Below are positions 1-63,003 of a stretch of 64,000 nucleotides of DNA, piece after piece. Origin of the DNA: Ktedonobacter robiniae (GTDB taxonomy: Bacteria > Chloroflexota > Ktedonobacteria > Ktedonobacterales > Ktedonobacteraceae); the NCBI RefSeq assembly GCF_016587375.1, contig NZ_BNJG01000001.1:1798001-1862000 (forward strand), written 5' to 3'. A program made the position numbers and the translations under genes. A model generated the notes under the pieces. The model did no database searches and was not told where the DNA came from. It saw only the letters and a list, made by a program, of their open reading frames with translations. Each line of letters starts with the position of its first letter. Position 1 is the stretch's first letter.

Positions 1-309
1 GAACGCGCGCGCTTCGACGAGGGCACCAAGTGCATCCTCTGTGGCGCCTGCACTGGTTCCTGCCCCTCGATCTGGGGCAACCAGGACTGGGTCGGTCCCG
101 CCGCCATCGTCAACGCGCACCGCTTCATCTTCGATAGCCGTGACGAGGGTGCCGCCGAGCGCCTCAATATCCTGGGCAAGAAGGATGGCGTCTGGCGTTG
201 CCGCACCATCTTCAACTGCTCCGATGCCTGCCCACGCGGCATTCCGGTTACCGACCTGATCGAAGAGGTCAAGCGCGCCATCATCTATGGTGACACAAAG
301 AGTGTTTAG
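1..309 (+). CDS. sdhB: Succinate dehydrogenase/fumarate reductase iron-sulfur subunit, C-terminal part
   Basis: Reading from the first base gives 102 residues and a TAG stop, so the N-terminus lies outside the window. The fragment has the second half of an SdhB/FrdB protein: a CxxCxxCxxxCP cluster (C11, C14, C17, C21) and a later C67 / C73xxxC77-P group, the usual ligand set for the [4Fe-4S] and [3Fe-4S] clusters. It would pass electrons from the flavoprotein subunit to quinone at the membrane. The 2Fe-2S ferredoxin half is not visible. The last three codons (K-S-V-stop) lie inside a long inverted repeat shared with the convergent hydrolase gene. Confidence 0.88.
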   Translation, partial: ERARFDEGTKCILCGACTGSCPSIWGNQDWVGPAAIVNAHRFIFDSRDEGAAERLNILGKKDGVWRCRTIFNCSDACPRGIPVTDLIEEVKRAIIYGDTKSV

Positions 310-370
310 TGATAAAAAAACAGTAGTTGCACTTCGTGCAACTACTGTTTTTTTATCACTAAACACTCTT
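298..370. terminator. Long perfect palindrome between convergent gene ends (hairpin 1)
   Basis: Arms of 35 bp (298-332 and 336-370) match without a mismatch around a TTC loop. Seven A and seven T sit in the arms, so it can act as a terminator in both directions. Both stop codons (307-309 on plus, 359-361 on minus) are inside the stem, and both proteins therefore end in Lys-Ser-Val. Confidence 0.85.
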
Positions 371-1264
371 TGAAGCCTTTTGGAGAAATTCGGTGATCCA
401 TTCATTGACGAGTTCGGGTTTCTCTTGCTGGACCCAGTGGCCGCTATCGGGGATGCGCCGCACTTCTATGTTGGGAACCCACTCCTCCAGGCCATAGGTC
501 ATGGCGATATCCAGGGCCACGTCCTGCTCACCCCAGATAAGCAGCGTGGGCTTATCGATTCTCCCTTTGTTTCCGCTGACGGCCCCGATACTTGAGCGCC
601 GCCAGATCGAGCGATAGTAGTTAATCGCCGCCGTCAGTGCGCCCGGCTTGCTCATGGCCTCTTTATAGCGCTCCAACACATCCTCTGGAAAGGCTGACTT
701 CTGCACGGCGCTGGCGTAGAGCATCTTTGCAATAGGCTCAGCCCCTTCACGACTAAGGGCCAGCTCTGGCAGGACGGGCAGTTGAAAGGCATAAACATAC
801 CAGCTCTTGCGCAGCTGCTTCCAGGTCCGTAGCTCACGCGCGAAGGTCCAGGGCGGCGGCGCATTCAGACCAATCAGGCGCTCAACCATGTGCGGATACC
901 TCAGGCCAAACTGCCACATCAGCACACCACCCCAGTCATGGCCCACGACGATAGCCCGCTCATAGCCCAGGCCCTTGATCAGGCCCTCAATATCGCGCAA
1001 GAGGATCGCGATCTCGTAGCCTCGGCGCGGCTTATCTGTATCGTTATAGCCCCGCAGGTCAGGCGCCACCACCTTATATCCCAGTTGCGCCAAAAAAGGG
1101 ATCTGGTGCCGCCAGGAGTACCAGAACTCAGGGAAACCATGCAGGAGCACAATCAATGAACCCTCACCTTGCGTAACATAATGCATCCGAATGCCATTGG
1201 TGAGGATATCTCGATGCTGCCACTCAGTTATTGTTGTTGTCATACTACCTACCCTCTTTATCAA
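359..1264 (-). CDS. Alpha/beta hydrolase, epoxide hydrolase-like
   Basis: 301 residues, the usual size for soluble epoxide hydrolases. HGFP (42-45) provides the oxyanion region. The nucleophile elbow is GHDWGG with Asp110, which points to an epoxide hydrolase or haloalkane dehalogenase mechanism rather than a serine esterase. Asp248 and His276 (DSGHW) complete the triad. A cap region lies between about residues 135 and 230. No signal peptide, so probably cytosolic. A second ATG eight codons in (MTTTITEW) is an equally possible start. The substrate cannot be read from sequence. It lies downstream of the B12-type regulator on the same strand, separated by hairpin 2. Confidence 0.85.
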   Translation of the reverse strand: MIKRVGSMTTTITEWQHRDILTNGIRMHYVTQGEGSLIVLLHGFPEFWYSWRHQIPFLAQLGYKVVAPDLRGYNDTDKPRRGYEIAILLRDIEGLIKGLGYERAIVVGHDWGGVLMWQFGLRYPHMVERLIGLNAPPPWTFARELRTWKQLRKSWYVYAFQLPVLPELALSREGAEPIAKMLYASAVQKSAFPEDVLERYKEAMSKPGALTAAINYYRSIWRRSSIGAVSGNKGRIDKPTLLIWGEQDVALDIAMTYGLEEWVPNIEVRRIPDSGHWVQQEKPELVNEWITEFLQKASKSV

Positions 1265-1338
1265 AAAGACAAGCCTTCAGCGTCGTGTTACCTACCTAAG
1301 ATTGTAACACTTTTCTTCTGGACGCCTGGTAGGTGTAA

Positions 1339-1405
1339 ATCATGTAAGGGATTATGTGTGGCGACATAGCACAGCTATGTCGCCACACATAATCCCTTAC
1401 ATGAT
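1339..1405. terminator. Long perfect palindrome (hairpin 2)
   Basis: Perfect 32-bp arms (1339-1370, 1374-1405) around an ACA loop. The right arm covers the last codons and stop (1397-1399) of the regulator gene. It would end that transcript before the hydrolase gene. Confidence 0.85.
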
Positions 1406-2941
1406 ATGGTGCGCCTCGTCGCGCGCTGGCTGCGACTGTTGAAGGGGGACAAGCTCGTGCAGGCGGCGGGTGGCTTCGTTTGCGTCGGACCCCAGGAAGA
1501 CACCCTTGATACTTTTTACCAGGCCGAGATCCTGCATAAAGGCACCTCCACCAAAGCAGACAGTGGGGCGAGGTCCCTCTAGTTTACTGATCTCACGCGC
1601 GATCTCTGCCAAGTCCCGCGCGCGTGGTCGCGTGGTTGCTGAGAGACATACCACTCCAGGTCGCAGGCGCCGGATCTCTTGCAGCAAGCTCTGAGGCTCC
1701 AGCATCTGCCCCAGGTAGTAGACATTAAAGCCCTGGCGGCGCCAGAAGAGCGCCAGCATCAGTATACCAATCTCATGCGTCTCCCTCGGCGCGCAGCCAA
1801 CCAGGATGGCTGGCCCCTGGCGCTGGTAGGGCGTGGTCTGAAAGAGATAGGCCAGGCGCGTACGAATCATATTGCTGGCAAAGTGCTCGACCGTTACCGT
1901 GATCTGGCGCGAAGCCCATAATTCACCAATCCGATAGAGCACTGGCTGAAACAGGTTACTACATACCTCCTCAACCGGGTAGTAGAAGAAGGCCTCATCC
2001 ATAATTCTCTGCACATGTCCCTCGTCAAGCTGCCTGATTGCCTCCAGCATGATGTCTGCGATACGCGCCAGCGTGGGCACCGCCTCCATACGCTCCCTGG
2101 CACGCTGCTGACTGGCGTAGATCTGCGGAGCGCGGAGAGCCAGGAGAGAGAGACGTTGAAGAGCTTCGCGCGGGGTCAGGCCCGCCTCGATCAAATGTAC
2201 AATCTGATCGCGTGTGAGCTTGGAGGCAAAGTGTTCGATGGTGCGGGGAAGTGAGACCGTATGGCGCAATTCAACAAGCTTCGTCAGCACCGGTTGCAGT
2301 ACCTGCTGGCAGACGGTGGCCGCTGGATAGGTATCAAAGGCCTCGCTCAGAATACGCCCCGCGCCCCCCTCATCCATCATGGTAATCGCACGCAGCAAAG
2401 ATTCATGCAATTCGGGAAACTTGCGCTGTCTGGGCGGAGTTGTAGACATATTCGCGCTATAGTGCCTGTTATACACCGGCTCCAGGCGCACCAGTTCCTG
2501 CATTGATAGGTAGACACTCGTGTTGTTCTGCTTGATACGTCGATTGAGCCAGTGGATAGCCGCCAGGTCTCGCATTGAATAGAGGCGCGCGTTATTGCTC
2601 CCATGCCAGGGCGCCGGAATACCAAAACGCCGCTCCCAGGAGCGCAGCGTCATCGCCGGGATATGCGTCTGAGAGATAACTGTCTCAAGGTCAAAGCATG
2701 GGGTCGCAGAGTAGCGCTCCAGGTGTGGCAACCCATCTCCAGGCGGCACATGGAGAAGTGAGAACATCTCTTCCGTTACCGGGGTGCGCCGCTCAGAAAA
2801 GGGAGAGCCTGGAGCAGTTTCATTCTGCTCCCCAGGCACGATGATCTCCTGCGTATCATAGATGCCGTTAGCCTGAGGCTGGCTCTCAAACGGCACAATC
2901 GCACGCTCAAATGGATTAAACGGTTTTCCTGAGGCTTCCAT
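1397..2941 (-). CDS. MerR-type regulator with two cap domains and a cobalamin-binding domain (CarH-like)
   Basis: 514 residues. A MerR helix-turn-helix (about 85-150, TLRSWERRFGIP) follows a low-complexity N-terminus. Two copies of the helical B12-cap module follow (about 178-265 and 292-372), then a Rossmann-type B12-binding domain (about 376-500) with E387-T-H389-E-I-G, the ExHxxG form of the lower-ligand motif. The second cap has W342-x9-E352-H353, the Wx9EH signature of the CarH photoreceptors that use adenosylcobalamin to sense light. The first cap keeps E236-H237 but has Arg226 where Trp is expected. CarH proteins usually have one cap (about 300 aa), so this is a duplicated form. Likely a light- or cobalamin-responsive repressor; its target is unknown but it is divergent from the decarboxylase. 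Confidence 0.82.
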   Translation of the reverse strand: MEASGKPFNPFERAIVPFESQPQANGIYDTQEIIVPGEQNETAPGSPFSERRTPVTEEMFSLLHVPPGDGLPHLERYSATPCFDLETVISQTHIPAMTLRSWERRFGIPAPWHGSNNARLYSMRDLAAIHWLNRRIKQNNTSVYLSMQELVRLEPVYNRHYSANMSTTPPRQRKFPELHESLLRAITMMDEGGAGRILSEAFDTYPAATVCQQVLQPVLTKLVELRHTVSLPRTIEHFASKLTRDQIVHLIEAGLTPREALQRLSLLALRAPQIYASQQRARERMEAVPTLARIADIMLEAIRQLDEGHVQRIMDEAFFYYPVEEVCSNLFQPVLYRIGELWASRQITVTVEHFASNMIRTRLAYLFQTTPYQRQGPAILVGCAPRETHEIGILMLALFWRRQGFNVYYLGQMLEPQSLLQEIRRLRPGVVCLSATTRPRARDLAEIAREISKLEGPRPTVCFGGGAFMQDLGLVKSIKGVFLGSDANEATRRLHELVPLQQSQPARDEAHHIM

Positions 2942-5111: not shown

Positions 5112-5117
5112 GCCAGG

Positions 5118-12235: not shown

Positions 12236-13423
12236 TTAGATGCACAGGCCCAGGACGCGGGACTGGCGGATGACCTCCGCGCCAGCGTTTAGGTCGCGGT
12301 TGGCAATGACGGTCTGGGCAGCCTCGCGCAGTCCCGAGACGGCTGTAGGCGTATCCAGGTCGTTCTCCATGGCCTGCTGGAAGAGGGCGCGAACCTGTGC
12401 GTCCTCGCCATGGCTCTCCTCACCCACAAGGCAACGCACCTGCTTAAAGAGTTCAATCGTCTCTTGCGCCTTGCCCAGATCCTCGGGTGTGCATTCCCAG
12501 GGCTGACGATAGTGATGGCTCTGAAGCGTCACGCGGATCACATCTGGTGAATAAGTCTTGAGCAGGTTGCTGACCAGCGTCAGGTTACCCAGCGACTTGC
12601 TCATCTTCTCGCCATCCTGGTACACCATGCCGGTGTGCATCCAGAACTGGCTGAAAGGCTTCTTGCTGGTATAGTGCTCGGATTGCGCAATCTCACAGGC
12701 GTGATGGGGGAAGGCCAGGTCGGCACCGCCACCATGGATGTCGATCTGCTGACCCAGGTGGCGAATCGACATGGCGCTACACTCTATGTGCCAGCCGGGA
12801 CGTCCCGGACCCCAGGGGCTGGGCCACGCGGGCTCACCAGGTGCCTGGGCCTGCCAGAGCACGAAGTCCAGGGGATCATGCTTGCGCTTATCCTCGGGAA
12901 AATTACCACGCTCATTGGCGACATTGAGCATCGACTGGTAGTCATTGAGGCCAATCGCGCGCCCAAGGGTACCAAAGTCGGGGTCCTGCTTCACGCTATA
13001 GAAGACGCAACCCTCGCTCACATAGGCCAGGCCCTTCTCAACGAGGTCCTGCACGATCTCGACAACATCAGGAATCGCGTCGGTGGCGCGTGCGTAGACA
13101 TCGGGGCGACGAACGTTTAGAGCGTCCATGTCGCCCAGGAAGCGGGCCGTCTCACGGCGTCCCAGTTCGTCCCAGGCCATATTCAGCTCACGGGCCTTGC
13201 GCAATACATCGTCATCAATATCGGTCACATTCTGTACGTAGCGCACGGTGATCCCCTGCGCCTCCAGATACCGAATGAGCGTATCAAAGGATACATAGGT
13301 AAAGGCATGCCCCAGGTGAGTTGTATCGTATGGAGTGACACCACATACATAGATAGTGGCCAGGCCTTGTTTAAGCGGGGTAAAAGGGTCAATGGATTGG
13401 GTCAGCGTATTAAATAGCTTCAT
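12236..13423 (-). CDS. Cysteinyl-tRNA synthetase-like / MshC-like cysteine ligase
   Basis: 395 residues, class I aminoacyl-tRNA synthetase fold. VCGVTPYDTTHLGH (26-39) contains the HIGH motif, GEKMSKS ends at 277, and C27, C215 and H240/H241 fit the zinc site. TPYDTTHLGHA and the length (395, no extended anticodon-binding region; CysS is about 460) resemble MshC, which joins cysteine to glucosaminyl-inositol in mycothiol synthesis. EIAQSEHYT and GRPGWHIECSAMS resemble CysS. I cannot decide between the two. AGGAG precedes the ATG; the start overlaps the end of tatD by 14 bp, so translation is probably coupled. Confidence 0.75.
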   Translation of the reverse strand: MKLFNTLTQSIDPFTPLKQGLATIYVCGVTPYDTTHLGHAFTYVSFDTLIRYLEAQGITVRYVQNVTDIDDDVLRKARELNMAWDELGRRETARFLGDMDALNVRRPDVYARATDAIPDVVEIVQDLVEKGLAYVSEGCVFYSVKQDPDFGTLGRAIGLNDYQSMLNVANERGNFPEDKRKHDPLDFVLWQAQAPGEPAWPSPWGPGRPGWHIECSAMSIRHLGQQIDIHGGGADLAFPHHACEIAQSEHYTSKKPFSQFWMHTGMVYQDGEKMSKSLGNLTLVSNLLKTYSPDVIRVTLQSHHYRQPWECTPEDLGKAQETIELFKQVRCLVGEESHGEDAQVRALFQQAMENDLDTPTAVSGLREAAQTVIANRDLNAGAEVIRQSRVLGLCI

Positions 13424-18844: not shown

Positions 18845-19010
18845 TCACAAGTCAGTACCCTACGGCTAAAGCCGAGGGCTTGGAGTTGTGTCTGAACTCC
18901 ACCGCAACTCAGCATACCTTTTCAGGCGTGCTGCTTTGGCTTCATCGTCCGACACATCAGGGCGTACTGACAAGAGGCCCGTTCCTATCCAGTCTTGCCG
19001 GATAAGAAGC
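18845..19010 (-). ncRNA. Possible omega RNA region at the right end of the TnpB element
   Basis: In IS200/IS605 elements the guide RNA overlaps the 3' end of tnpB and stops at the transposon right end. Here a hairpin CCCTCGGC-TTTA-GCCGTAGGG (18858-18878) covers the TnpB stop codon and is followed by TACTGAC, as expected for a right end. The 5' limit given is a guess. The guide would be read from the DNA just below 18850. Confidence 0.35.
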
Positions 19011-20179
19011 GTTCGCATCGCAATATTCCTCGCGCCAACCAGATCGGCATGGAGCGTGTATTGACAATTCTGACAGACAAAGAGCAAGCCCTTGTAAGGG
19101 CGATTCTCTTTGCAGGTGTGCCCACATTTGGGGCAAGACTGCGAGGTATAGTTGGCATCCACCTTGATTGCCATACTTTGATGCAAGAGCGCTTTATAGG
19201 CGATCATCGCGTGCAACTCACCAAAAGCCCATTTGGAGAAGGTACGATTGGCTTTTCGCTGTTTGGCACTGGCTTGTTTGCCTTTCCGTCGTTTGGTGTG
19301 CTCACGAATGTCTGTCAGATGCTCCAGTCCAATCAAGCTTTGTGAATATCGGGCAACAATCCGTTTACTCACGACATGATTGGCGTTGGCTTTCAACCGT
19401 CTCTCTCGTCCACTGATGGCGACGAGCCTTCTCGCCGCGGAACGAGTGCCTTTCTTTTGCAGACGCTTTCTCAATCGTGCGTAGTGGTGAGACCTGGTAA
19501 TAGGAGAGATGTCAGCATGGAAGGTGCAATCGCCTTGCATGGTCGCCGTGACGGCAAGGTATCGCATCCCCACATCCACGCCAACGACCTGCTTGTGCGT
19601 TTCTGGGGTAGGATCAGCCGTCTCCACTTCCAGGGAGACGAGCAGGTAAAACTGCTTCTTGGGCTTGTCATACCAGAGTTTCGATGCACCTATCTCCGTA
19701 CCACGCTGGATCAATGCCACGTGCTTGTCATAGCCAGTATAGGGAACCTTGACCCGTCCCTCAAGAGTGAGAAGACTCACGTGCTGCTCTTTCTTGAACG
19801 TGTAGTCCTTCTTATACTGGTAGGTCAACGTGGGGGAGAGAAACGTAGGAGCCTTATCAAGCCCTTTGTACCGCTTTTTGGTGAGACCTGCCTTACGATG
19901 AGCAGCATTGTTCTTCACCTTTGTCCATAAGCCTTTATAAGTGGCTCCAACTTGGCGAGGAACAGAACAGGCCATTTGTGAGGGAAGGTGAAAACGGAGG
20001 CGAATCTCATCATACGTGCCATCTTGCAGACGAACAGCATTACTCATCTTGCCATTCTCAAAGGCATATGTACTGACATAGTTGAGAGCATCACGATATG
20101 CCAGTTGTGTCTCACGTAATTCCTTGAATTGCTCGGGTGTTGTATTCAATTTGAGTTTCGCTGTTAACACCGTTTTCAT
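18866..20179 (-). CDS. tnpB: TnpB, RNA-guided nuclease of an IS200/IS605-family transposon
   Basis: 437 residues. N-terminal REC/wedge part, then a RuvC domain with all three acidic positions: D202 (GVDVGMRYLAV), E286 (LIGLEHL), D379 (HADLVGARN). A zinc finger sits between them (C349, C352, C369, C372). It appears full length and intact, so the nuclease may be active. Such proteins are guided by an omega RNA and cut the empty donor site, helping the element persist. No TnpA transposase is present in the window, so it would have to be mobilised in trans. The stop codon lies within the right-end hairpin. Confidence 0.93.
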   Translation of the reverse strand: MKTVLTAKLKLNTTPEQFKELRETQLAYRDALNYVSTYAFENGKMSNAVRLQDGTYDEIRLRFHLPSQMACSVPRQVGATYKGLWTKVKNNAAHRKAGLTKKRYKGLDKAPTFLSPTLTYQYKKDYTFKKEQHVSLLTLEGRVKVPYTGYDKHVALIQRGTEIGASKLWYDKPKKQFYLLVSLEVETADPTPETHKQVVGVDVGMRYLAVTATMQGDCTFHADISPITRSHHYARLRKRLQKKGTRSAARRLVAISGRERRLKANANHVVSKRIVARYSQSLIGLEHLTDIREHTKRRKGKQASAKQRKANRTFSKWAFGELHAMIAYKALLHQSMAIKVDANYTSQSCPKCGHTCKENRPYKGLLFVCQNCQYTLHADLVGARNIAMRTLLIRQDWIGTGLLSVRPDVSDDEAKAARLKRYAELRWSSDTTPSPRL

Positions 20180-20818: not shown

Positions 20819-20889
20819 AGCTACCTCACTTCGTTATTTATAACTGCTTTACTTCTCTCTAGAAGGTATTCTCAGCGTCTGCGACGCTT

Positions 20890-20956
20890 CGCGGGGTTAT
20901 GGGATGTGGTGGAAAAATGCCTTTGGCATTTTTCCACCACATCCCATAACCCCGCG
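20890..20956. terminator. Long perfect palindrome (hairpin 3) with shoulder hairpins
   Basis: Perfect 32-bp arms (20890-20921, 20925-20956) around TTT. On the left lies GCGTCTGCGACGC and on the right GCGAGCCACGTAGTGGC, the small secondary hairpin that also flanks hairpins 6, 8, 9, 10 and 17. Lies between dtd's start and the end of the kinase gene. Confidence 0.85.
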
Positions 20957-21009
20957 AGCCACGTAGTGGCAAGGAATCCTGCCTGCATGGGCGATGTCAT
21001 TGCTTCTGA

Positions 21010-21969: not shown

Positions 21970-22037
21970 CTAAAGCACGAGTTTTCATAGAATGGTATGA
22001 TATTGCCCGTACTATTCTATGAAAACTCGTGCTTTAG
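21970..22037. terminator. Long inverted repeat (hairpin 4)
   Basis: 24-bp perfect arms (21970-21993, 22014-22037), extended inward by three or four more pairs. The outer CTAAAGCACGAG resembles repeat R3. It lies between acpS and the kinase, both on the minus strand. Confidence 0.75.
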
Positions 22038-22656: not shown

Positions 22657-22706
22657 AGTAGTCGCGTATGCCAGTAGTGGGTCCGCTACTGGCATACGCG
22701 ACTACT
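22657..22706. terminator. Long inverted repeat (hairpin 5)
   Basis: Perfect 21-bp arms (22657-22677, 22686-22706) with an 8-base loop. The right arm is a copy of repeat R5. It ends 4 bases from the stop of the UDP-glucose dehydrogenase gene. Confidence 0.8.
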
Positions 22707-24813: not shown

Positions 24814-24940
24814 TCGCTAACGTCAAGCGTTCGACCCCCATTATAACATAACGCTCTTCAACCGCCCTTCGTACCTGGGAGCTAAATAACCTATGTTAAA
24901 GTACTGGCTTGACTCCTCGCGCCTGCGGCGCTTGCCCTGG

Positions 24941-24997
24941 TAGGTGGTGTGATGCGTGTTGGCAGCTGCAGGCTGCCAACACGCATCACACCACCTA
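24941..24997. terminator. Long perfect palindrome (hairpin 6) with shoulder hairpin
   Basis: 26-bp arms (24941-24966, 24972-24997) around TGCAG. To the left lies CTCGCGCCTGCGGCGCTTGC, the shoulder motif in reverse. It stands between divergent genes, so it is not obviously at a gene end. Confidence 0.8.
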
Positions 24998-25090
24998 CTA
25001 AATATACATGATGTTAAATAGAAACCCGGCAGAAGTCAGCAGCAACGGCAGAAATTGCAGCTTCACCTCCTATGTGATAAAGTGGTCGAC

Positions 25091-25451: not shown

Positions 25452-26801
25452 ATGTCGAAGGATCAATCGGAACGCAGAACCTATCGCCGGAGTCCTGGAC
25501 GCCAGTATGACTCCGAGTTTGATCCCCTGCGCAGCCGTACTGGCGCTAGCAGGAGTGGTCAGCTCAATAGCAACGGGGCTCGACAGAGCGGTCGCTTGTC
25601 TTCGCCATCCGATAGCCGCTCTGGATCTCTTCATACCCAGCGACCCGACCCACGCAGAACACGCCAGTTGTTGCGCCAGCAGATCATTTCCAGTAAAGCT
25701 TCCGGGACAGAAGAGGAAGGCGATGAACTTCGCGAGCTAGAGACCGATGAGTTGGAGCAACGTATGCGCCGCACCTCGGGTGTTATAGCTAACAACGTCT
25801 CTGCATCACGTAGCCCTAACCGGACCCGTAACCTCTCCTCCCAGGCACCTTACCTTCCAGCGGCGCACGATCTCTACCTGGATGAAGACAACGAATGGGA
25901 ACAGGCAGAACTTGATGAAGTCATAGACGACGAATATGAAGATGATCCTTTAGACGAGCGCCTGGGCTACGCCAGTCCAGGCCCGGGCATTGCACGCTCA
26001 GCCCAGCTTCAGCCCCGACGTAGCGTTATGTATAATGACGTCTATGAACGTCGTGCGCCCAGCGGTCGCCTGGCACCTCCTCTTCCACCAGAAGAAGAAT
26101 ACGATGAGCCCTATGAGGAATATGACGATGAGGGCTATGAGGAGATCGACGAACGCGAGGCCCGCCGTCAGAAGAAACGCAACAAGAAGGTCTCTCGGCG
26201 TGGAATTCTCATCGGCCTGGGGGCCGCTGCGGTAGCGACCGCAGGCGTCACCGCCTATGAGCTAGGTCCCAAAATTCCTCAAGCCATTAGCGACACCGGG
26301 AGCAATATAGAGCACCAGATCCAGGATGCCTTCAATAAAGGTATGGCCCAGGGAGCTGAAAACGCACGCAAGGAGTTTATCACGGCCCTGGATAACCTGG
26401 AGGGCTTTACCCTTCAAGGAGCAATTGAGGCCGCCAAGTTGACGCGGGTGGCCTATGACGTCTTTGTCGCGCCCATCGTCCAGTTTGGCTCGACGGTCGC
26501 AACTGATTTCTTGAAGGCCATGCTCAGCGCGCTTAAGACCGCGCGTGGCCTGCTTGCGGGCGTCTACCAGGACAACGCGACCCTTCAAGCCATCCAAAAA
26601 GTCCTTGAAAGTTGGGTCAGCCAGGTACAGAACATGCCTAAGCAGCTTACCGCCGTAACCCAGACTGACCTGGATGGTGCCCAGGCCTACCTGCGTGCTC
26701 TCCAGCGCAAAATTGATGATGAGAAGGCCAAGCTGAATAACCCTCAGCCCTCGCCGACTGTTCCCGCTTCACCACAGGCCACACCCAAGGCCAAGCAATA
26801 G
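25452..26801 (+). CDS. Unknown membrane-anchored protein with long acidic disordered N-terminus
   Basis: 449 residues. Residues 1-235 are low complexity, first Arg/Ser-rich, then Glu/Asp/Tyr-rich. At about 240-270 a basic stretch (RRQKKRNKKVSRRG) precedes a hydrophobic helix, so the first part should be inside the cell and the rest outside. The C-terminal part (about 280-430) is amphipathic helical, then a Pro/Ala tail. The SRRG run before a hydrophobic helix resembles a twin-arginine signal but is too far in. GGAGGAAGAG lies upstream of the ATG. I do not recognise it. Confidence 0.65.
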   Translation: MSKDQSERRTYRRSPGRQYDSEFDPLRSRTGASRSGQLNSNGARQSGRLSSPSDSRSGSLHTQRPDPRRTRQLLRQQIISSKASGTEEEGDELRELETDELEQRMRRTSGVIANNVSASRSPNRTRNLSSQAPYLPAAHDLYLDEDNEWEQAELDEVIDDEYEDDPLDERLGYASPGPGIARSAQLQPRRSVMYNDVYERRAPSGRLAPPLPPEEEYDEPYEEYDDEGYEEIDEREARRQKKRNKKVSRRGILIGLGAAAVATAGVTAYELGPKIPQAISDTGSNIEHQIQDAFNKGMAQGAENARKEFITALDNLEGFTLQGAIEAAKLTRVAYDVFVAPIVQFGSTVATDFLKAMLSALKTARGLLAGVYQDNATLQAIQKVLESWVSQVQNMPKQLTAVTQTDLDGAQAYLRALQRKIDDEKAKLNNPQPSPTVPASPQATPKAKQ

Positions 26802-26805
26802 AAAT

Positions 26806-26852
26806 GGTATGTGTTGGAAGAGACGGCTTCGCCGTCTCTTCCAACACATACC
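26806..26852. terminator. Perfect palindrome (hairpin 7)
   Basis: 22-bp arms (26806-26827, 26831-26852) around TTC, 4 bases after the stop codon of the preceding gene. Confidence 0.85.
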
Positions 26853-26881
26853 AGGTCACTCATGCTTCTGAAGCAGTTTTC

Positions 26882-26946
26882 CAGGGTCAGGGTATATGAG
26901 GAGGAGGCCGGCTTCACTGGCCTCCTCCTCACATACCCTGACCCTG
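26882..26946. terminator. Long palindrome (hairpin 8) with shoulder hairpin
   Basis: 28-bp arms (26882-26909, 26919-26946) with one mismatch and a 9-base loop. Followed by GCGAGCCACGAAGTGGCGAG, the shoulder motif. Second hairpin within 100 bp. Confidence 0.8.
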
Positions 26947-27741: not shown

Positions 27742-27879
27742 AAGAGAAGTGGGGCGTACTGCCAGCCTACGGCTGGCAGTACGCCCCACTTCTCTTACTC
27801 AGGAGTTGATGGCTTGTTTGAGCCTCAGGCTGGCAGTACGCCCCACTTCTCTTACTCAGGAGTTGATGGCTTGTTTGAG
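27742..27879. repeat. Hairpin 9 with tandem-duplicated right arm and lgt end
   Basis: Left arm 27742-27767 pairs perfectly with 27771-27796 (loop TAC). A 52-bp stretch (27771-27822) recurs at 27828-27879, period 57, so a second identical right arm exists at 27828. The duplicated segment includes the last codons and stop of lgt. Shoulder motif CTCGCACCTGCGGCGCTCGC precedes it. Confidence 0.85.
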
Positions 27880-28895: not shown

Positions 28896-29324
28896 GCTAT
28901 CACTCCATATACTGATAATTTCTCTAGCAAACAGGCAAGTAGAGTTGCAACCTCTTTCGCGCCTGGTATTGCCAACATTGTTATTTTACGCTTTCCTGTA
29001 TCATAATATGCATTACGTAACCACGCAACCCGTCTATCGGGTAGGTGGGGAGGTTCTAGTTCTTGCCTCGGCTCGCTACGCTCGCCGGGTAAGGGGATGT
29101 GGATGGAAAACGGCATTGCCGTTTTCCATCCACATCCCCTTACCCGTGGACGCCGCAGGCGCACAAGCGTTACCTGGTGAGCGCGCAGGCGGGAAAGAGC
29201 TTCTGAGCAAGGGAAGCTTCCCATATTCCCACAGACACGTACCTCTGAGCGCTGCGTATACCATTATCATAATCGAGTTATTCTTTCTTTTCTTTATCGC
29301 CATAGAAAGGCATATCTAACTACT
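28896..29324. other. Divergent intergenic region holding hairpin 10
   Basis: 429 bp between lgt and the EamA transporter. Contains hairpin 10 with shoulder hairpins on both sides (GGCTCGCTACGCTCGCC, left; GACGCCGCAGGCGCACAAGC, right). Open frames crossing it include the palindrome and have no family match. Confidence 0.55.
29086..29146. terminator. Long perfect palindrome (hairpin 10)
   Basis: 29-bp arms (29086-29114, 29118-29146) around ATT. Lies between two divergent genes, so termination of a known transcript is not its evident role. Confidence 0.85.
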
Positions 29325-33888: not shown

Positions 33889-33937
33889 GCGACGTGGGAC
33901 CTGGCGACCGTAGGTGGTTCGCCAGGTCCCACGTCGC
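33889..33937. terminator. Inverted repeat (hairpin 11)
   Basis: Perfect 19-bp arms (33889-33907, 33919-33937), 11-base loop, about 50 bp past the ligase stop. Confidence 0.75.
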
Positions 33938-35142: not shown

Positions 35143-35203
35143 TTTTTGTAGAACGTCTTGTTTGTCTGCGCCTTGCGCAGACAAACAAGACGTTCTACAA
35201 AAA
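35143..35203. terminator. Long perfect palindrome between convergent genes (hairpin 12)
   Basis: 29-bp arms (35143-35171, 35175-35203), loop CTT, with T and A runs at the outer ends. It fills the gap between the dioxygenase stop (35137) and the peptidase stop (35204) almost exactly. Confidence 0.9.
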
Positions 35204-41870: not shown

Positions 41871-42050
41871 GGGGGATGCGGCGGGTTTGGGAAGGATGTG
41901 CGATTTATCGCGGGGATACGGGGTGGTGAGGATGGTGTGCGTGTTTTTCCTTTGGGGCGAGGGGCGAGGGGGACAAGCGAGCGTTTTTTTCAATTGGGGA
42001 CAAGGGTGGCGCCCGCATTTTCAATGGGGCGCCGGGGGTAAGGTGGATGG

Positions 42051-43391
42051 TTAGTTTTTTTCGGGGGTGAGGAGGGTGGTGCGTTTGTCGCGGAGGTATT
42101 GGGCGATCTGGGCGGGTTCCTCTTTGCGGAGGGCCTGGGCTTTGATGTCGGCGAGGACGTTGCTCCATTGCTCTTTGGCGGTGAGGAAGCGGTTGTCGCG
42201 GGCGAGGAGTTCCTCGAAGATGTGGCGTTCGAGTTCGTGCCAGAGGGAGCGGTCGCGGCCATCGAGGTCGCCTTCGCCGGGTTCGTAGTCCTGGTCGCTG
42301 GTGTGGTTGTCGATGCGGGCATGGAGGGGGGTGAAGTGCTGGCGGAGCATTTCTTCCATGCGTGATATGTCGAGGGAGCCGGCGTCGAAGGCGAGGGTGC
42401 CCGTGAGGGTGACCTGGACGACGGGGGGCTTCTCGGTCTGGGCGTAGGCGGGGCCTTTGTCCTGGCAGTAGGATTCGAGGCGCAGATAGATGTCTTCGGG
42501 CTCGTTGAGGCCGTCAACGCGGATCTCGTGGCGCACGAAGGGGCGACGGGTGCTCTTGAGGCGCTCGGCGTGATGGATGCGCTCTTTCTTCTCCAGGTTG
42601 ATGATGCGTCCGGGCTCGTCGGTATCGATCTCGACGTAGTAGTAGCCACGGTCCTCCCACTGGACCTCTTCGGCGCTACAGGTCTCGGTGGAGCCGGGAT
42701 TGTAGATCCAGCCGTCGAATTCATAGGGTTTGTGGACGTGGCCGAGGGCGAGATAGTCGACCTGGCCGCTGAGGGCCTGGAACTGGGCCATGGTGGGAAG
42801 ACCCTGGATGCGGGCGACCATGCCATCGATGCCAGTGTGCATCATGAGCAGGCGGTAGGCGACGCCGGAGGCGTCTTCGTCGGCGCGGGCGTCCTGGAGG
42901 GCGTGCGACATGCCTTCGAGGGCACGGGAGGTTGAGGAGCCAAGCCAGTGGATGCCGTAGACGCGCAGATTGCCATCGAGGAGGTCAACATAAGCGCCGA
43001 GCATGTTTTGCTGGTCCCAGGGTTCGAGCTGGGGCATGCCGTCGACCATGCGCGGCTGGAGCAGGACGAGATAGCCCTGGTAGCAGAGGAATTGCAGCCA
43101 GGAGGTACCCTCACGGTAGTAGCTGCGGTCGTGGTTGCCTTCGATGGCGATGACGGGGATGTTGGCGTCCTTGAGCTTCTTGAGGCCTTCGATGGCGTGG
43201 ATGAGGGTCAGGGCATCGATGGCGCGCTTGTTGAAGAGGTCGCCGGCGATGACCATGAAGTCGACACGGCGCTCGATGGCTTCGTCGACGAGTTCCCAGA
43301 AGGCCCATGTGAAGTCGTTGAAACGTTCGCGGACGCCGTATTGTTCATAGCCCAGGTGGGTGTCCGCGCAGTGTATGAAGGATGCGCGCAT
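42051..43391 (-). CDS. DNA repair exonuclease, SbcD/Mre11-like
   Basis: 446 residues from ATG at 43391 (MRASFIHCADTHLG). Phosphoesterase motifs: CADTHLG, GDLFNK, EGNHDRS, HTG near 215 and GHVHKPY. C-terminal capping region of about 180 residues. Such nucleases cut DNA ends and hairpins with an SbcC/Rad50 partner; no SbcC is in this window. This may matter because the surrounding DNA is full of long palindromes, which are SbcCD substrates in E. coli. Confidence 0.88.
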   Translation of the reverse strand: MRASFIHCADTHLGYEQYGVRERFNDFTWAFWELVDEAIERRVDFMVIAGDLFNKRAIDALTLIHAIEGLKKLKDANIPVIAIEGNHDRSYYREGTSWLQFLCYQGYLVLLQPRMVDGMPQLEPWDQQNMLGAYVDLLDGNLRVYGIHWLGSSTSRALEGMSHALQDARADEDASGVAYRLLMMHTGIDGMVARIQGLPTMAQFQALSGQVDYLALGHVHKPYEFDGWIYNPGSTETCSAEEVQWEDRGYYYVEIDTDEPGRIINLEKKERIHHAERLKSTRRPFVRHEIRVDGLNEPEDIYLRLESYCQDKGPAYAQTEKPPVVQVTLTGTLAFDAGSLDISRMEEMLRQHFTPLHARIDNHTSDQDYEPGEGDLDGRDRSLWHELERHIFEELLARDNRFLTAKEQWSNVLADIKAQALRKEEPAQIAQYLRDKRTTLLTPEKN

Positions 43392-43446
43392 AAGGGTTAT
43401 GCCTTTCTTTTTTTGGTATATTCCAATAAATTGGGGGGGAATTTTT

Positions 43447-43501
43447 GTGGGGACACCCCACGCCCCGGCAGGAGGGAGACCCTCCTGCACCTCCCCTTTT
43501 T
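43447..43501 (-). repeat. R4 single unit
   Basis: GGGGACACCCCACGCCCCGG, then CAGGAGGGAGACCCTCCTGC. Placed just 5' of the SbcD-like gene, as R4 arrays are 5' of other genes. Confidence 0.7.
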
Positions 43502-43504
43502 GTG

Positions 43505-43903
43505 TTACATGGTGGCTGGGCCGGTCATGAAGGCGCGAACGGCGGCGGCGACGAGGATCAGGGCGGCGATGCCGTAGATCAGGGCGTCGGTGCGCGGTTT
43601 TTTGCCGCTGGATGCGTAGGTGGTGGCGACGGGTATGGCGAAGATGACGATGGCTCCATAGACGTAGTGGAGGTAGTAGAGGTTGGAGCCGCCGCCGGGT
43701 TTGAGGCCCGAGGCTACCATGATGAGGCCGAGAAGGCCTTGTAGGGCGGCGAGGCCGACGGCGATGTACATGCCAATCGCCAGGGGCCGGGTGACACCTG
43801 ATTTACGGAAATATTGCACGAAGCTCCAGATCATGACGATGGCGCCTGAGAGAAAGATCAGGTATGGGTTGTATTGATGAAGGGTTAGTACGAGTCCAGT
43901 CAA
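43505..43903 (-). CDS. Small four-helix membrane protein
   Basis: 132 residues, four hydrophobic helices (about 14-32, 40-62, 76-95, 106-126), histidines at 9 and 79. The layout resembles small haem- or quinone-linked membrane proteins, but I see no firm family. TTG start with GAGGAG 9 bases upstream; no better start exists. Confidence 0.6.
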   Translation of the reverse strand: MTGLVLTLHQYNPYLIFLSGAIVMIWSFVQYFRKSGVTRPLAIGMYIAVGLAALQGLLGLIMVASGLKPGGGSNLYYLHYVYGAIVIFAIPVATTYASSGKKPRTDALIYGIAALILVAAAVRAFMTGPATM

Positions 43904-44055
43904 GGTGATAACTCCTCAAGGAATCTATTCTTTGCCTACCTGGCATAACCGGTAAGGGTTGTGGATGCTGTGTTGTAATATAGCGCGAGTGGGGAGGAAA
44001 AACAAGTTGGGTAAGGTATGGTGGTATGGGGATTTGCAGGTAATTCAGTTTTTGG

Positions 44056-44094: not shown

Positions 44095-44135
44095 GTTAGG
44101 CATGGAGCACGAGTGGGAAGGAAAAACAAGTTAGT

Positions 44136-44196
44136 CACTGGAAAAGGGGATGTGGTGGGCTGGCAGAGCCAGCCCACCACATCCCCTTTTCCAGTG
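44136..44196. terminator. Long perfect palindrome (hairpin 13)
   Basis: 29-bp arms (44136-44164, 44168-44196) around AGA, 12 bp after the galU stop on the minus strand. Confidence 0.88.
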
Positions 44197-44208
44197 AGCA
44201 AAAAAGGA

Positions 44209-47224: not shown

Positions 47225-47989
47225 ATGATCAGCCCAATGCAGTTTGTACGCCGGTTTTCGGGTCGTGTTGGTTTCGCGGTTGGTTTGGGGGTGCTCTCGT
47301 TGAGCATGGCATTGCCGGCACAGGCTTTCGCGGCCACGATGAATGTTGATGCCCAAAAGTGTGGGGCCAAGGATGTAAAGTGTGTGATTGCCTTTGGAGA
47401 TCAGCGTATTACTGAGCGCCTAACCGATCTCAGCGCCCTGGATACCAAGGTGCAGACCTTGCAGCAGAAGAAGCATATCGGCGAAGACGAGGCCGAGGCC
47501 CTGAAAAATGATGTGAGCACCAATAAGAATGGTCTCAATACGCTGAAGAGCAAGCTGGACGCCGAGAGCGAGGCCCAGGCCGCACGCCAGGATGTGAAGA
47601 ACATTTATGAGCAGTTCCGCATCTATGCCGTTGTGCTGCCACGCGATGAGCATAGGCTGCACCTTGACGTAGAGAAGACCCTCGATGATAAGCTCACGGA
47701 TATGAAAACGAAGATCGAGGCCCGCATCGATAAAGCGCCCACTGATAAGAAGGACCAGTTGAACAGCCTGTACAATGACTACAAGGCGCAGTTGGCGGCC
47801 GTCACGCCTCTGATTGAAGGGGCGAAGGCCATCCTCCCTAACATGACCCCGACGAGCTTCAATACTAATCGCGGCGCCTATGAGGGGCAGCTCAACACAC
47901 TGAAAAGCGATGAGAAGACCATCCAGAGCGACCTGCAAAAGGCTGCAAGTGATCTGAAGCAGATCAACCAGCTTCTTAAGAAGAAGTAA
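47225..47989 (+). CDS. Secreted helical (coiled-coil) protein of unknown function
   Basis: 254 residues. Signal peptide ending at AQAFA-A near residue 37, then a mature part almost entirely of charged helices with heptad character, two cysteines near 46 and 53. I do not recognise a family. Its stop codon lies in the 37-bp palindrome shared with the transporter gene. Confidence 0.68.
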   Translation: MISPMQFVRRFSGRVGFAVGLGVLSLSMALPAQAFAATMNVDAQKCGAKDVKCVIAFGDQRITERLTDLSALDTKVQTLQQKKHIGEDEAEALKNDVSTNKNGLNTLKSKLDAESEAQAARQDVKNIYEQFRIYAVVLPRDEHRLHLDVEKTLDDKLTDMKTKIEARIDKAPTDKKDQLNSLYNDYKAQLAAVTPLIEGAKAILPNMTPTSFNTNRGAYEGQLNTLKSDEKTIQSDLQKAASDLKQINQLLKKK

Positions 47990-48061
47990 AAGTGGATAAT
48001 AAAAAACACAGTGGTGGCCTCGCATGCGAGGCCACCACTGTGTTTTTTATTATCCACTTTT
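47988..48061. terminator. Longest perfect palindrome, no loop (hairpin 14)
   Basis: 37-bp arms (47988-48024, 48025-48061), fully self-complementary, 74 bp. It joins the two convergent stop codons (47987-47989 and 48061-48063). Confidence 0.92.
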
Positions 48062-52301: not shown

Positions 52302-53006
52302 TCAGCTTTTCACTTCGCGCAGGACATAGCCAACGCCACGCACGGTTTGCAGTAGTTGGGGAGGGAGATCCTGAAGTTTCTCCCGCAGGTGTTTGACATA
52401 GACCTCGATGACATTATCATCACCGACATAGTTGTAGCCCCAGATACGCGCCAGGATGGCGTTGCGCGTCAGCACCTGGCGGGGATGAGAGAGAAATAGC
52501 TCAAGAAGCTCAAACTCGCGCGGAGTCAGCTCTATTTCGCGTGTACCACGGCGTACGACACGGGTGGTACGGTTAAGCGTGATATCCTGAAAGACCAGCA
52601 CATTGCCAAGCTGCAAACCGCGTCGTCGAAGGACTGCGCGTACACGAGCCAGGAGTTCTTTGAAGGCAAAGGGCTTGGTCACATAATCGTCGGCCCCTAG
52701 CTCAAGGCCAGCCACGCGATCCTCCACCTCCTCGCGGGCCGTCAGCATGATAATGGCGGTATCGTAGATGCCGTGAAGTTGTTGCGCAACGGCCATACCA
52801 TCCAGGCCGGGGAGCATAAGGTCGAGGATCACAATATCGGGTTTGTGCTTTTCCACAGCTTGCAGGGCCCCGTGGCCGGTCATGGCTACATGGACGGTAA
52901 AGCCCTCATACTCAAAGCCCATGCGCAGAAACTCAATAATCTGCCGCTCATCATCGACGAGCAAGATGGTAGGCATGTGCTCTTGTGCTTCGGGAGAAGA
53001 TACCAT
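52302..53006 (-). CDS. OmpR/PhoB-family response regulator
   Basis: 234 residues. Receiver: DDE (18-20), phospho-site D62 (VILDLMLPGLDG), Thr (LTARE), Lys (TKPF). Winged helix C-terminus with LTPREFELLELF. A shorter start at 52973 (MPTILLVDD) is possible. The first ATG and its GAGG lie inside the stem of hairpin 15. Confidence 0.93.
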   Translation of the reverse strand: MVSSPEAQEHMPTILLVDDERQIIEFLRMGFEYEGFTVHVAMTGHGALQAVEKHKPDIVILDLMLPGLDGMAVAQQLHGIYDTAIIMLTAREEVEDRVAGLELGADDYVTKPFAFKELLARVRAVLRRRGLQLGNVLVFQDITLNRTTRVVRRGTREIELTPREFELLELFLSHPRQVLTRNAILARIWGYNYVGDDNVIEVYVKHLREKLQDLPPQLLQTVRGVGYVLREVKS

Positions 53007-53080
53007 ATGACCTCGTTCTGTTTGATATGTAAACGCTGCTAAAGCACGCGTCTACATATCAAACAGAACGAGGTCATATG
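53004..53080. promoter_or_regulatory. Long inverted repeat covering the response regulator start (hairpin 15)
   Basis: Perfect 28-bp arms (53004-53031, 53053-53080). The inner part is an R3-like sequence. The start codon and GAGG of the regulator are in the left arm. If transcription comes through from the upstream gene, translation would be blocked; it may also end that upstream transcript. Confidence 0.75.
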
Positions 53081-56617: not shown

Positions 56618-56665
56618 ATACCGATATGTAGGTATTTTACATATAAAATACCTACATATCGGTAT
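56618..56665. terminator. Perfect palindrome, AT-rich (hairpin 16)
   Basis: 22-bp arms (56618-56639, 56644-56665), loop CATA. Unusually AT-rich for this set. Confidence 0.8.
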
Positions 56666-56695: not shown

Positions 56696-56748
56696 GGGTA
56701 ATAGGGGTGTTGCGGCGGTGCGACACCGCCGCAACACCCCTATTACCC
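56696..56748. terminator. Perfect palindrome (hairpin 17) with shoulder hairpin
   Basis: 25-bp arms (56696-56720, 56724-56748), loop CGA. Left shoulder CTCGCCACTGCGTGGCTCGC. Confidence 0.85.
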
Positions 56749-56790: not shown

Positions 56791-56858
56791 AGGTGGAAAA
56801 AGAGTGGGGAGTAGATGCCGACGCATGTCGGCATCTACTCCCCACTCTTTTTCCACCT
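56791..56858. terminator. Long perfect palindrome (hairpin 18)
   Basis: 32-bp arms (56791-56822, 56827-56858), loop GCAT. Ends 8 bases from the stop of the 95-residue gene. Confidence 0.88.
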
Positions 56859-58403: not shown

Positions 58404-58409
58404 CCAGGA

Positions 58410-58432
58410 GTCCATGCAAGCATGGACCCTAC
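58410..58432 (+). repeat. Dispersed repeat R6
   Basis: AGTCCATGCAAGCATGGACC and CTACA. Directly follows the epimerase stop. Confidence 0.7.
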
Positions 58433-58441
58433 AGCAGTGGT

Positions 58442-58726: not shown

Positions 58727-58743
58727 GGTAAGGTAGCTCCTTT

Positions 58744-59892: not shown

Positions 59893-60299
59893 GTGTTTCC
59901 CTTTCCCTTCTTTCCACGTTGCCGCCTGCGGCGGCAGAAAAAAATTACTCGGGGGCTTTGCCCCCGCACCCCCATAGTTTCCGACCGAGGCCGCATACGG
60001 TGGCAGGAGAATTTATTCGGGGGCGATGCCCCGCACCTCCATAGTCGAGACCGGGCCGTGCTGCGGCAGCAGGAGAATTTATTCGGGGGCGATGCCCCGC
60101 ACCTCCATGGGCGTCCTCTTATTAAGACGGATAACTGTATGCAATTACGTTTGGTATGGTACCAGAGGATATTTTTGGTATTTTTGTAGCTGGAGGTAAA
60201 TTTGCGCGATTTTTGCTGCCGGATTCCATTCTAAATGATGTAAATAGATGTTACGATATAAGGGATAATAGCAAGCGAGATAGCAAAGGGTGTGTATTT
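59893..60299. other. 407-bp divergent region with R4-type array
   Basis: Array at 59921-60110, then about 190 bp leading to the next gene, with AAAGGGTG before its ATG. No other gene. Confidence 0.6.
59921..60110 (-). repeat. R4-type array, three units
   Basis: GCCGCCTGCGGCGGC seed, then units GGGGGCTTTGCCCCCGCACC and two of the form GGGGGCGATGCCCCGCACCT, separated by GGCAGGAGAATTTATTC. The seed and the layout are the same as other R4 arrays but the unit sequence differs. Confidence 0.75.
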
Positions 60300-61193: not shown

Positions 61194-61200
61194 CGTGTTA

Positions 61201-61229
61201 TTGTCGCCATAGCGAAATTTTGCTATAGT
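61201..61229 (+). promoter_or_regulatory. Probable sigma-70 promoter of the gcv genes
   Basis: TTGTCG (61201-61206) and TATAGT (61224-61229), 17 bases apart, leaving a leader of about 80 bases to gcvT. No glycine riboswitch motif seen in the leader. Confidence 0.6.
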
Positions 61230-61315
61230 GGACAGCGGAAGCTTTGCGCGTCTGGTATTTTTATTAGATAGCGAGAGTAATCGATCCTCTAGAGCGCACG
61301 CATGGGAGTTTTTGT

Positions 61316-62440: not shown

Positions 62441-62459
62441 AATTAGTTGTGGGCTTTTA

Positions 62460-62482
62460 GTCCATGCAAGCATGGACCCTAC
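62460..62482 (+). repeat. Dispersed repeat R6
   Basis: GTCCATGCAAGCATGGACCC and TACA between gcvT and gcvH. Confidence 0.7.
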
Positions 62483-62540
62483 AATTTCCGTGAAGTGGGG
62501 AATAGAACAAACAGAGATACATTGAAGGAGAAGATAGACG

Positions 62541-62936
62541 ATGGCTAGCCTTAACCATCCTGCTAACCTGAAATATACGAAGACCGATGAGTGGGTCCTT
62601 GTAGAGGGGGACCAGGCGACAATTGGTATTACGGACTATGCTCAGGATCAGCTGGGTGACATTGTGTATATCGAGCTGCCCTGGGATGGCGGCCAGACGC
62701 TTGGTAACGAAGAGAAGTTCGGCGATATCGAGTCGGTCAAGGCGACCTCCGAGCTTGTGGCACCGCTCAGCGGCGAGGTGGTTTCCGCCAACCAAGAGTT
62801 GAAGGAGCGCCCAGAGCTGATCAACGATAACCCTTATGATGAGGGGTGGATGCTGAAGATCAAGCTTGCCAATACCGCGGAGCTGGACCAGCTGATGACT
62901 GCCGAGCAGTATTTGCAATACCTCGAAGGTAGATAG
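62541..62936 (+). CDS. gcvH: Glycine cleavage system H protein
   Basis: 131 residues. The lipoyl lysine is K67 in ESVKATSEL. TKTDEWVLVEGD and EGWMLKIKL are typical. Carries the aminomethyl group between P and T proteins. GGAGAAGATAGACG precedes the ATG. Confidence 0.96.
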   Translation: MASLNHPANLKYTKTDEWVLVEGDQATIGITDYAQDQLGDIVYIELPWDGGQTLGNEEKFGDIESVKATSELVAPLSGEVVSANQELKERPELINDNPYDEGWMLKIKLANTAELDQLMTAEQYLQYLEGR

Positions 62937-62938
62937 AT

Positions 62939-63003
62939 AGCGAGCAAGAAAAAAGCCGCTGGGATGGGCAACGCCCATCCCAGCGGCTTTTTTCTTGCTC
63001 GCT
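62939..63003. terminator. Long perfect palindrome between gcvH and gcvPA (hairpin 19)
   Basis: 31-bp arms (62939-62969, 62973-63003) around AAC, 2 bases after the gcvH stop. A run of T is inside the right arm. It should separate gcvPA from gcvTH transcription. Confidence 0.9.

What the first reader, a model, noticed from the sequence alone, without database searches (positions are those of the whole stretch)
298..63003. Nineteen long, almost perfect palindromes at gene ends, each with its own stem
Arms of 19-37 bp with very short loops occur at 298, 1339, 20890, 21970, 22657, 24941, 26806, 26882, 27742, 29086, 33889, 35143, 44136, 47988, 53004, 56618, 56696, 56791 and 62939. Typical rho-independent terminators have stems of 5-12 bp. 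The stem sequences are unrelated to one another, yet arms match exactly, so each palindrome seems to be kept or renewed locally. Some (24941, 29086) are between divergent genes where no terminator is needed. Possible roles: strong bidirectional terminators, 3' end protection, or products of a template-switching process. This could be a described but overlooked genome habit of this group.
Basis: partly seen in the sequence, partly recalled or inferred. Interest (0 to 1): 0.85.

Follow-up and report, generated by a model that had tools for sequence, protein, structure and literature searches.

The report
Self-matching palindromes at bacterial gene ends
A bacterium that likely belongs to the order Ktedonobacterales has a long, near-perfect DNA palindrome about every 4,000 bases in the half-million bases examined, mostly near gene ends; in related genomes both arms change together and the tiny loops flip over, so one arm is likely recopied onto the other during DNA replication, which would keep these likely transcription stop signals perfect while their sequence drifts.

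Summary
In detail: all 19 palindromes are present (arms 21-37 bp), and the habit is general. In 540 kb of this genome 132 palindromes have arms of 18 bp or more; simulated DNA has none above 14, and 1.45 Mb of other bacteria and archaea has 13. They crowd at gene 3' ends (40 in 12 kb of convergent gaps, 13 in 31 kb of divergent gaps). Same-genus genomes (5-8% different beside the palindromes) show the arms changing together: over three comparisons of alignable sites 243 pairs changed on both sides to a new matching pair (about 8 expected), 157 were broken (about 650 expected). That is near what neutral mutation plus unbiased arm copying predicts. Of 83 loops matched exactly, 35 are inverted. 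Paired changes are not enriched in transitions, G.U mismatches are not preferred over A.C, and palindromes between divergent genes behave alike, so upkeep looks DNA-level: replication template switching, a known mutation process at unusual scale. Function at gene ends is most likely two-way transcription termination (inferred from position and composition, untested). A minority, flanked by mini-hairpins and frequent between divergent genes, is a dispersed class. A second genus has the same gene-end palindromes.

The parts
296..372 (.). palindrome, arm 37, loop 3, spanning both stop codons of a convergent pair (309/359)
   Evidence: G001 has 3 paired changes, 1 single and an inverted loop, G003 a re-modelled stem
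1339..1405 (.). palindrome, arm 32, loop 3, tandem (-), overlaps gene end 1397; loop ACA inverted to TGT in G003; imperfect (no palindrome by my rule) in G001
20889..20957 (.). palindrome, arm 33, between two mini-hairpins; absent in G001, which keeps both mini-hairpins; a larger stretch is missing in G003
21970..22037 (.). palindrome, arm 28, loop 12, tandem (-)
22657..22706 (.). palindrome, arm 24, tandem (-); the centre reads as its reverse complement in G003, where the site no longer passes my palindrome rule
24940..24998 (.). palindrome, arm 27, loop 5, divergent genes, mini-hairpin beside it
26805..26853 (.). palindrome, arm 23, 4 bp after stop codon of 25452-26801(+)
   Evidence: site differs in G001 and G003
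26882..26946 (.). palindrome, arm 30, 2 mismatches, mini-hairpin at its right end
27742..27796 (.). palindrome, arm 26, convergent pair; extra partial arm copies to its right
29086..29146 (.). palindrome, arm 30, loop 1, divergent genes
33889..33937 (.). palindrome, arm 21, loop 7, tandem (+)
35143..35203 (.). palindrome, arm 29, nearly fills the gap of a convergent pair (35137/35204)
44135..44197 (.). palindrome, arm 30, 12 bp from gene end 44209(-); G001 stem differs by paired changes and gaps
47988..48061 (.). palindrome, arm 37, loop 0, fills the gap of a convergent pair (47989/48061)
53004..53080 (.). palindrome, arm 33, loop 11, with the GCTGCTAAAGCACGC / CTACATAT repeat motif, tandem (-)
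56618..56665 (.). palindrome, arm 24, loop 0, tandem (-)
56696..56748 (.). palindrome, arm 25, loop 3, mini-hairpin at its left end
56791..56858 (.). palindrome, arm 32, loop 4, 8 bp from gene end 56866(-); 5 paired changes and 1 single in G001
62938..63004 (.). palindrome, arm 32, loop 3, 2 bp after stop 62936(+); 6 paired changes, 1 single and an inverted loop in G003

Best explanation
These are long, near-perfect palindromes, mostly at gene ends, whose two arms change together between related genomes, likely because DNA polymerase switches template during replication and copies one arm onto the other, and those at gene ends likely act as two-way transcription terminators. Shown: number, excess over chance, position at gene 3' ends, mirrored changes of both arms, in-place loop inversion, same behaviour at sites without a gene end. 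Inferred: that replication template switching (partly between the two strands, which would invert the loop) is the copying step; that the GC-rich inner ~12 bp plus the T-rich, G-poor outer arm ends transcripts in both directions. In this picture selection would act only on having a hairpin there, while the exact base-by-base match comes from the copying and needs no selection. A minority flanked by mini-hairpins is a dispersed class that shows the same changes.
For: Paired changes at alignable sites: G0-G3 80 loci, 2199 pairs: 70 complementary double, 53 single, 2 other double, flank divergence 0.053; G0-G1 59 loci, 1578 pairs: 69/49/4, 0.073; G1-G3 56 loci, 1521 pairs: 104/55/2, 0.077. If arms changed independently at flank rates: 222/212/216 single and 2.1/2.8/3.0 complementary double. 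Mirrored co-changes 72, 73, 106 against shuffle means 9.9, 9.6, 20.1 (maxima 20, 18, 31 of 1000). Neutral hits plus unbiased copying predicts 235, 229, 234 hits; implied 197, 195, 267. Loops of 3+ nt, three comparisons, 141 in all: exactly same 48, exactly inverted 35, nearer same 21, nearer inverted 17, ambiguous 2, length changed 18. Not RNA-driven: transitions:transversions among paired changes 151:92 against 518:258 in flanks (Fisher p 0.19); G.U vs A.C mismatches in transcript sense 12:18, 17:14, 13:14. Divergent sites (17 of 43 comparisons alignable): 15 paired, 12 single, 1 other of 502 pairs; loops 2 same, 6 inverted, 7 other. Gene ends: convergent 40 in 11.9 kb, tandem 76 in 65.7 kb (67 of 76 nearer the 3' end), divergent 13 in 31.0 kb. 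Convergent 3' arms: 63-67% GC within 12 nt of the loop, then 45-50% T and 8-11% G at 16-28 nt; tandem 30-37% T, 7% G; intergenic baseline 26% T, 23% G. Template switching that homogenises arms and inverts spacers is described in yeast and, for rRNA, proposed from patterns (PMC8604942, PMC8794818; passages).
Against: The paired-change counts use only loci with at most 15% broken and 15% gapped pairs; 13, 27 and 28 palindrome sites per comparison fail that and look replaced or realigned, and 2 and 2 more in the two G001 comparisons fail with only a short palindrome left. Unfiltered counts are less clean (paired/single/other double/gap 75/114/11/187, 118/177/30/277, 138/155/14/376). Of anchored own sites, 18 of 111 in G003 and 18 of 106 in G001 have no palindrome by my rule (5 and 6 of them empty), so upkeep is not absolute. 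The three comparisons share genomes, and flanks are partly coding, which may lower the flank rate. My G.U test lacks power: a control on ordinary short terminators with one mismatch gave G.U 24, A.C 17, other 18. Only 53 of 190 tandem palindromes (three genomes) have TTTT in the 3' arm or within 8 bases after it, so most are not canonical intrinsic terminators; no RNA data. Clustering of adjacent paired changes, expected of multi-base events, exceeds shuffles clearly only in G0-G3. No repair defect that would explain a high rate was found: MutS and ExoVII are present.
Confidence: 0.68

Rival explanations
1. Ordinary compensatory evolution: selection for RNA hairpins (terminators or 3' stabilisers) removes broken pairs and fixes second-site repairs; no template switching needed.
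For: Strong placement at gene 3' ends, GC-rich core and T-rich outer arm at convergent sites; mid-stem pairs have the fewest single breaks (about 1%).
Against: Paired changes are as rich in transversions as flanks, which cannot pass through G.U; A.C mismatches are as common as G.U in transcript sense (weak control); loops invert exactly, which pairing selection does not ask for; palindromes between divergent genes do the same; paired changes reach near the neutral expectation.
Confidence: 0.17
2. Most are copies of a mobile palindromic repeat (REP- or MITE-like) that inserts at gene ends; arm identity reflects recent insertion.
For: Mini-hairpins sit beside 23 of 132 own palindromes by a motif rule. 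Sites empty in a relative exist: own palindromes 5 of 132 (G003) and 6 of 132 (G001), G001 palindromes 13 of 135 in each comparison, G003 palindromes 3 and 4 of 112. Over three comparisons 14 of 69 mini-hairpin cases are empty, against 10 of 330 others.
Against: 116 of 132 arms match no other palindrome; most own sites are shared with relatives (93 of 111 and 88 of 106 anchored), so they are not recent; no consistent target duplication seen by eye; no Y1 (RAYT/IS200-type) transposase match in the genome.
Confidence: 0.1
3. Loops are flipped by reciprocal recombination or cruciform resolution between the arms (or by an invertase), not by polymerase template switching; arm matching follows from mismatch repair of a cruciform.
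For: Loop inversion is frequent (35 exactly inverted against 48 exactly same) and would also result from arm recombination.
Against: Arms are mostly unrelated between sites, so no site-specific recombinase fits; arms of 20-37 bp are short for homologous recombination (recalled). Cruciform repair remains possible and predicts much the same sequences; nothing here separates the two.
Confidence: 0.2

Closest known systems
Quasipalindrome template-switch mutation (yeast and rRNA genes from passages; E. coli from search listing only, PMC7202029)
   Same: Arms homogenised, spacer inverted in place, changes on both sides
   Different: There: scattered events (69 loop-inversion-only patterns in a large rRNA set, 10 spacer inversions in yeast coding sequence). 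Here: one long palindrome per ~4 kb, and 35 of 83 exactly matched loops inverted at 5-8% divergence
Intrinsic (Rho-independent) bidirectional terminators (features recalled)
   Same: Hairpin just after the stop codon, GC-rich core, T-enriched distal 3' arm in both directions
   Different: Stems two to three times longer than usual (usual length recalled), T tract usually diffuse and inside the arm, only 53 of 190 with TTTT
REP/REPIN/BIME elements (search listing only: PMC3733652, PMC8266576, PMC3116915; BIME recalled)
   Same: Palindromes between genes; one class here has mini-hairpins beside it
   Different: Mostly single-copy stems; no Y1 transposase match in the genome
Coding palindromes in Nematomorpha mitochondria (PMC6649704, abstract start in search listing only)
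   Same: Many long perfect inverted repeats in one genome
   Different: Those sit inside protein-coding genes of mitochondria; these sit at gene ends of a bacterium

Membership tests
Template-switch-corrected inverted repeat (quasipalindrome process) | both arms change together to a new matching pair | tested here: met
   243 complementary double changes in 5298 pairs over three comparisons of alignable sites, ~8 expected; mirrored shuffles
Template-switch-corrected inverted repeat (quasipalindrome process) | spacer inverted in place | tested here: met
   35 exactly inverted, 48 exactly same, of 141 loops over three comparisons
Template-switch-corrected inverted repeat (quasipalindrome process) | change arises in one replication event | not testable with these tools
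   needs mutation accumulation or near-identical strains; adjacent paired changes against shuffles: G0-G3 10 vs 4.8 (21 of 2000 reach it), G0-G1 7 vs 4.2 (213), G1-G3 15 vs 10.4 (146)
Intrinsic terminator | hairpin shortly after the stop codon | tested here: met
   median 41.5 bp stop to hairpin centre, 108 of 156 gene ends within 60
Intrinsic terminator | U tract directly after the stem | tested here: not met
   18 of 190 tandem palindromes have TTTT at the arm's end or within 8 bases after it, 40 of 190 inside the 3' arm; T-enrichment lies within the arm
Intrinsic terminator | transcripts end there | not testable with these tools
   no RNA data
REP / REPIN (RAYT-mobilised) | related sequence copies across the genome | tested here: not met
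   116 of 132 arms singletons; a minority class shares mini-hairpins
REP / REPIN (RAYT-mobilised) | Y1/RAYT transposase in the genome | tested here: not met
   PF01797: 0 matches in own genome; control rings in 5 of 14

The most novel reading that the evidence does not exclude
A bacterial lineage has handed upkeep of its gene-end signals to a replication error: thousands of long palindromes are continually re-perfected by template switching, so the structure is inherited while its sequence drifts freely, and the same sites carry long palindromes of unrelated sequence in different species, in at least two genera.
Probability: 0.45. Interest if true: 0.82.

Novelty: new variant of a known kind. 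Interest (0 to 1): 0.68.

Why it matters
How long RNA or DNA stems keep perfect pairing is an old question; the usual answer is slow compensatory selection. Here is a set of bacterial genomes with about 25 natural test sites per 100 kb, where neutral mutation plus arm copying roughly accounts for the numbers. It makes template-switch rates measurable in nature, warns that covariation is not always proof of selected RNA structure, and suggests unusually long terminators as a lineage trait.

Tried and rejected
Chance: rejected. Missing Rho as cause: Rho over cut-off in 28 of 29 genomes, own included. Missing SbcCD: inconclusive; the SbcD model gives only sub-threshold matches, in 28 of 29 genomes, among them G007 and G031 whose sampled DNA has few palindromes; the SbcC model passes its cut-off in 0 of 13 genomes but also in only 1 of 14 controls. 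Missing mismatch repair or ExoVII: both present in 13 of 13. Target-site duplication at empty sites: none consistent by eye. Strand orientation of the purine-rich 5' arm: dropped, because a palindrome reads the same way on both strands. Second genus as a co-change test: at 79% identity none of 27 anchored stems passes the alignment filter, leaving only the site test. Multi-base paired events: only weak support. Naming the organism by a conserved protein: the scan lists no record of the genome itself, so the order is inferred from a relative.
Full report
WHAT IS THERE. All 19 palindromes exist: arms 21-37 bp, loops 0-12, 13 of 19 without any mismatch. The window lies in a 10.7 Mb, 9-contig genome. 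It likely belongs to the order Ktedonobacterales: relative G031, listed as same order, has a contig of exactly the length (5,069,607) of CP126532.1, titled Ktedonobacterales bacterium. In 540 kb around the window 132 palindromes have arms of 18 or more (106 of 24 or more); if that density held, the genome would have about 2,600. Two simulated sequences of equal length reach 14 at most. 80 loci from other bacteria and archaea, 1.45 Mb, have 13 and 0.

WHERE. With a simple gene predictor of my own, 129 of 132 lie between genes: 76 in tandem gaps (67 nearer the 3' end), 40 convergent, 13 divergent; 3 are inside predicted genes. Per kb of gap that is about 3.3 convergent, 1.2 tandem, 0.4 divergent. 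Of gaps of 30 bp or more, 39 of 63 convergent, 72 of 234 tandem and 14 of 68 divergent hold one (with a 15 bp margin). Stop codon to hairpin centre has a median of 41.5 bp over 156 gene ends.

HOW THEY EVOLVE. G003 and G001 (same genus) align along the region. Of 132 own palindromes, G003 has a palindrome at 93, empty 5, none or shorter 13, no anchors 21; G001: 88, 6, 12, 26. At alignable sites (80, 59, 56 loci in three comparisons) 5,298 pairs show 243 complementary double changes, 157 single, 8 other double. Independent change would give roughly 650 single and 8 complementary doubles (sums). If mutations strike at the flank rate and are then resolved by copying either arm onto the other, about 698 hits are expected; 2C+s+2X gives 659 (sums). 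The three comparisons share genomes and are not independent, and flanks are partly coding. Sites failing the 15% filter (13, 27, 28) and the unfiltered counts are given under evidence against.

LOOPS. Of loops of 3 or more bases that are not self-complementary, 22, 9 and 17 are identical and 16, 12 and 7 are the exact reverse complement; the other 58 are near matches (21 nearer same, 17 nearer inverted, 2 ambiguous) or changed length (18). Examples: 1339 (ACA to TGT) and 62938 (AAC to GTT) in G003, 296 (TTC to GAA) in G001, and the centre of 22657 in G003.

DNA OR RNA LEVEL. Paired changes have the same transition share as flanks (151 of 243 against 518 of 776, p 0.19), so G.U steps do not lead. 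In transcript sense G.U and A.C mismatches are about equal (its control is weak). Palindromes between divergent genes show the same paired changes and loop inversions. This points to DNA copying, not RNA pairing, as the force that keeps arms matched. Mid-stem pairs (12-19 from the loop) are the most often co-changed and least often broken in all three comparisons. Recombination or cruciform repair would leave much the same traces; replication template switching is my choice because it is the described process with these signatures.

FUNCTION. At convergent sites the arm is 63-67% GC within 12 bases of the loop, then 45-50% T with 8-11% G at 16-28 bases; tandem sites have 30-37% T there, and the 13 divergent sites 12-27% T. 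With the gene-end position, a compact terminator core inside a longer palindrome is the likely reading, working both ways because the palindrome reads alike on both strands. It is untested. If transcripts end near the core, the outer arms never pair in RNA, which again fits DNA-level upkeep (inference).

TWO POPULATIONS. Mini-hairpins such as GCGCCTGCGGCGC or GCCACTGCGTGGC sit beside 8 of 13 divergent but 1 of 40 convergent palindromes (p 1.2e-5); in G001 6 of 17 and 0 of 32, in G003 7 of 13 and 2 of 37. That class is also more often absent in a relative (14 of 69 comparisons against 10 of 330). At 20889 G001 keeps both mini-hairpins but lacks the palindrome. No Y1 transposase match was found in the genome.

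OTHER GENERA. Densities per 100 kb of arms 18 or more: G002 (same genus) 6.7, G007 1.0, G009 6.2, G011 15, G022 5, G024 15, G023+G028 0, G031 0, G051 10 (20-180 kb sampled each), own 24.4. In 200 kb of G024 there are 49 and in G026 33; in G024 they are again densest in convergent gaps (10 in 3.0 kb; tandem 32 in 20.2 kb, 25 of 32 nearer the 3' end; divergent 7 in 11.7 kb), in G026 9 in 4.8 kb, 20 in 23.0 kb (15 of 20), 4 in 12.4 kb. At 79% identity 27 of 49 G024 sites could be anchored; 12 of these have a G026 palindrome of arm 18 or more, about 1 expected from density, and none of the 27 passes the stem alignment filter. So sites persist while stems turn over.

KNOWN OR NEW. Template switching that homogenises arms and inverts spacers is described (passages of PMC8604942 and PMC8794818). 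PMC8604942 also says that inverted repeats in proteobacteria are more conserved than their surroundings, citing a paper not held here. The all-bacteria inverted-repeat survey (PMC10434271, passages) names Chloroflexi only as the subgroup with the lowest frequency and has no word beginning with Ktedono. A Ktedonobacteria genome paper (PMC13289182, passages) mentions terminal inverted repeats and no palindrome, hairpin or terminator. The listings of searches (titles and abstract starts; several lists capped) show no description of this habit; the library holds open-licence papers only. The odds given to the rivals overlap with the main reading and with each other, so they do not sum to one.

Noticed in passing
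window 42024-44028: This segment is inverted in G003; one breakpoint lies about 107 bp from the palindrome at 44135, perhaps a palindrome-linked rearrangement.
   Followed up: no
window 27742-27850: A third partial copy of the arm follows the palindrome, and G001 has further tandem copies of the same arm piece, as if copying had run on.
   Followed up: no
window 53004-53080 and own-genome sites: A small repeat family with GCTGCTAAAGCACGCG and TCTACATAT motifs (5 of 132 own palindromes by a simple motif rule), palindromic and scattered.
   Followed up: partly
window 18866-20179 (-): TnpB-family RNA-guided nuclease in a genome with no match to the Y1 transposase family, so no such partner was found.
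   Followed up: partly
window 12236-13423 (-): Close to both the cysteine--tRNA ligase and the mycothiol ligase MshC models (394 bits, over its cut-off; 373 bits, below its cut-off of 485).
   Followed up: no
window 43104-43376 (-), inside ORF 42051-43490: Weak SbcD-like (nuclease) match; a second such match at G000:C1:2251499 lies about 1 kb from an SbcC-like one at 2252812.
   Followed up: partly
G000:C1:3662999 and 3731082: Two long MutS1 matches, both over the family cut-off, in the same genome.
   Followed up: no
L226-L234 and L140 (G024): Palindromes with arms up to 51 bp (the longest with some mismatches), longer than in the window's genome.
   Followed up: no
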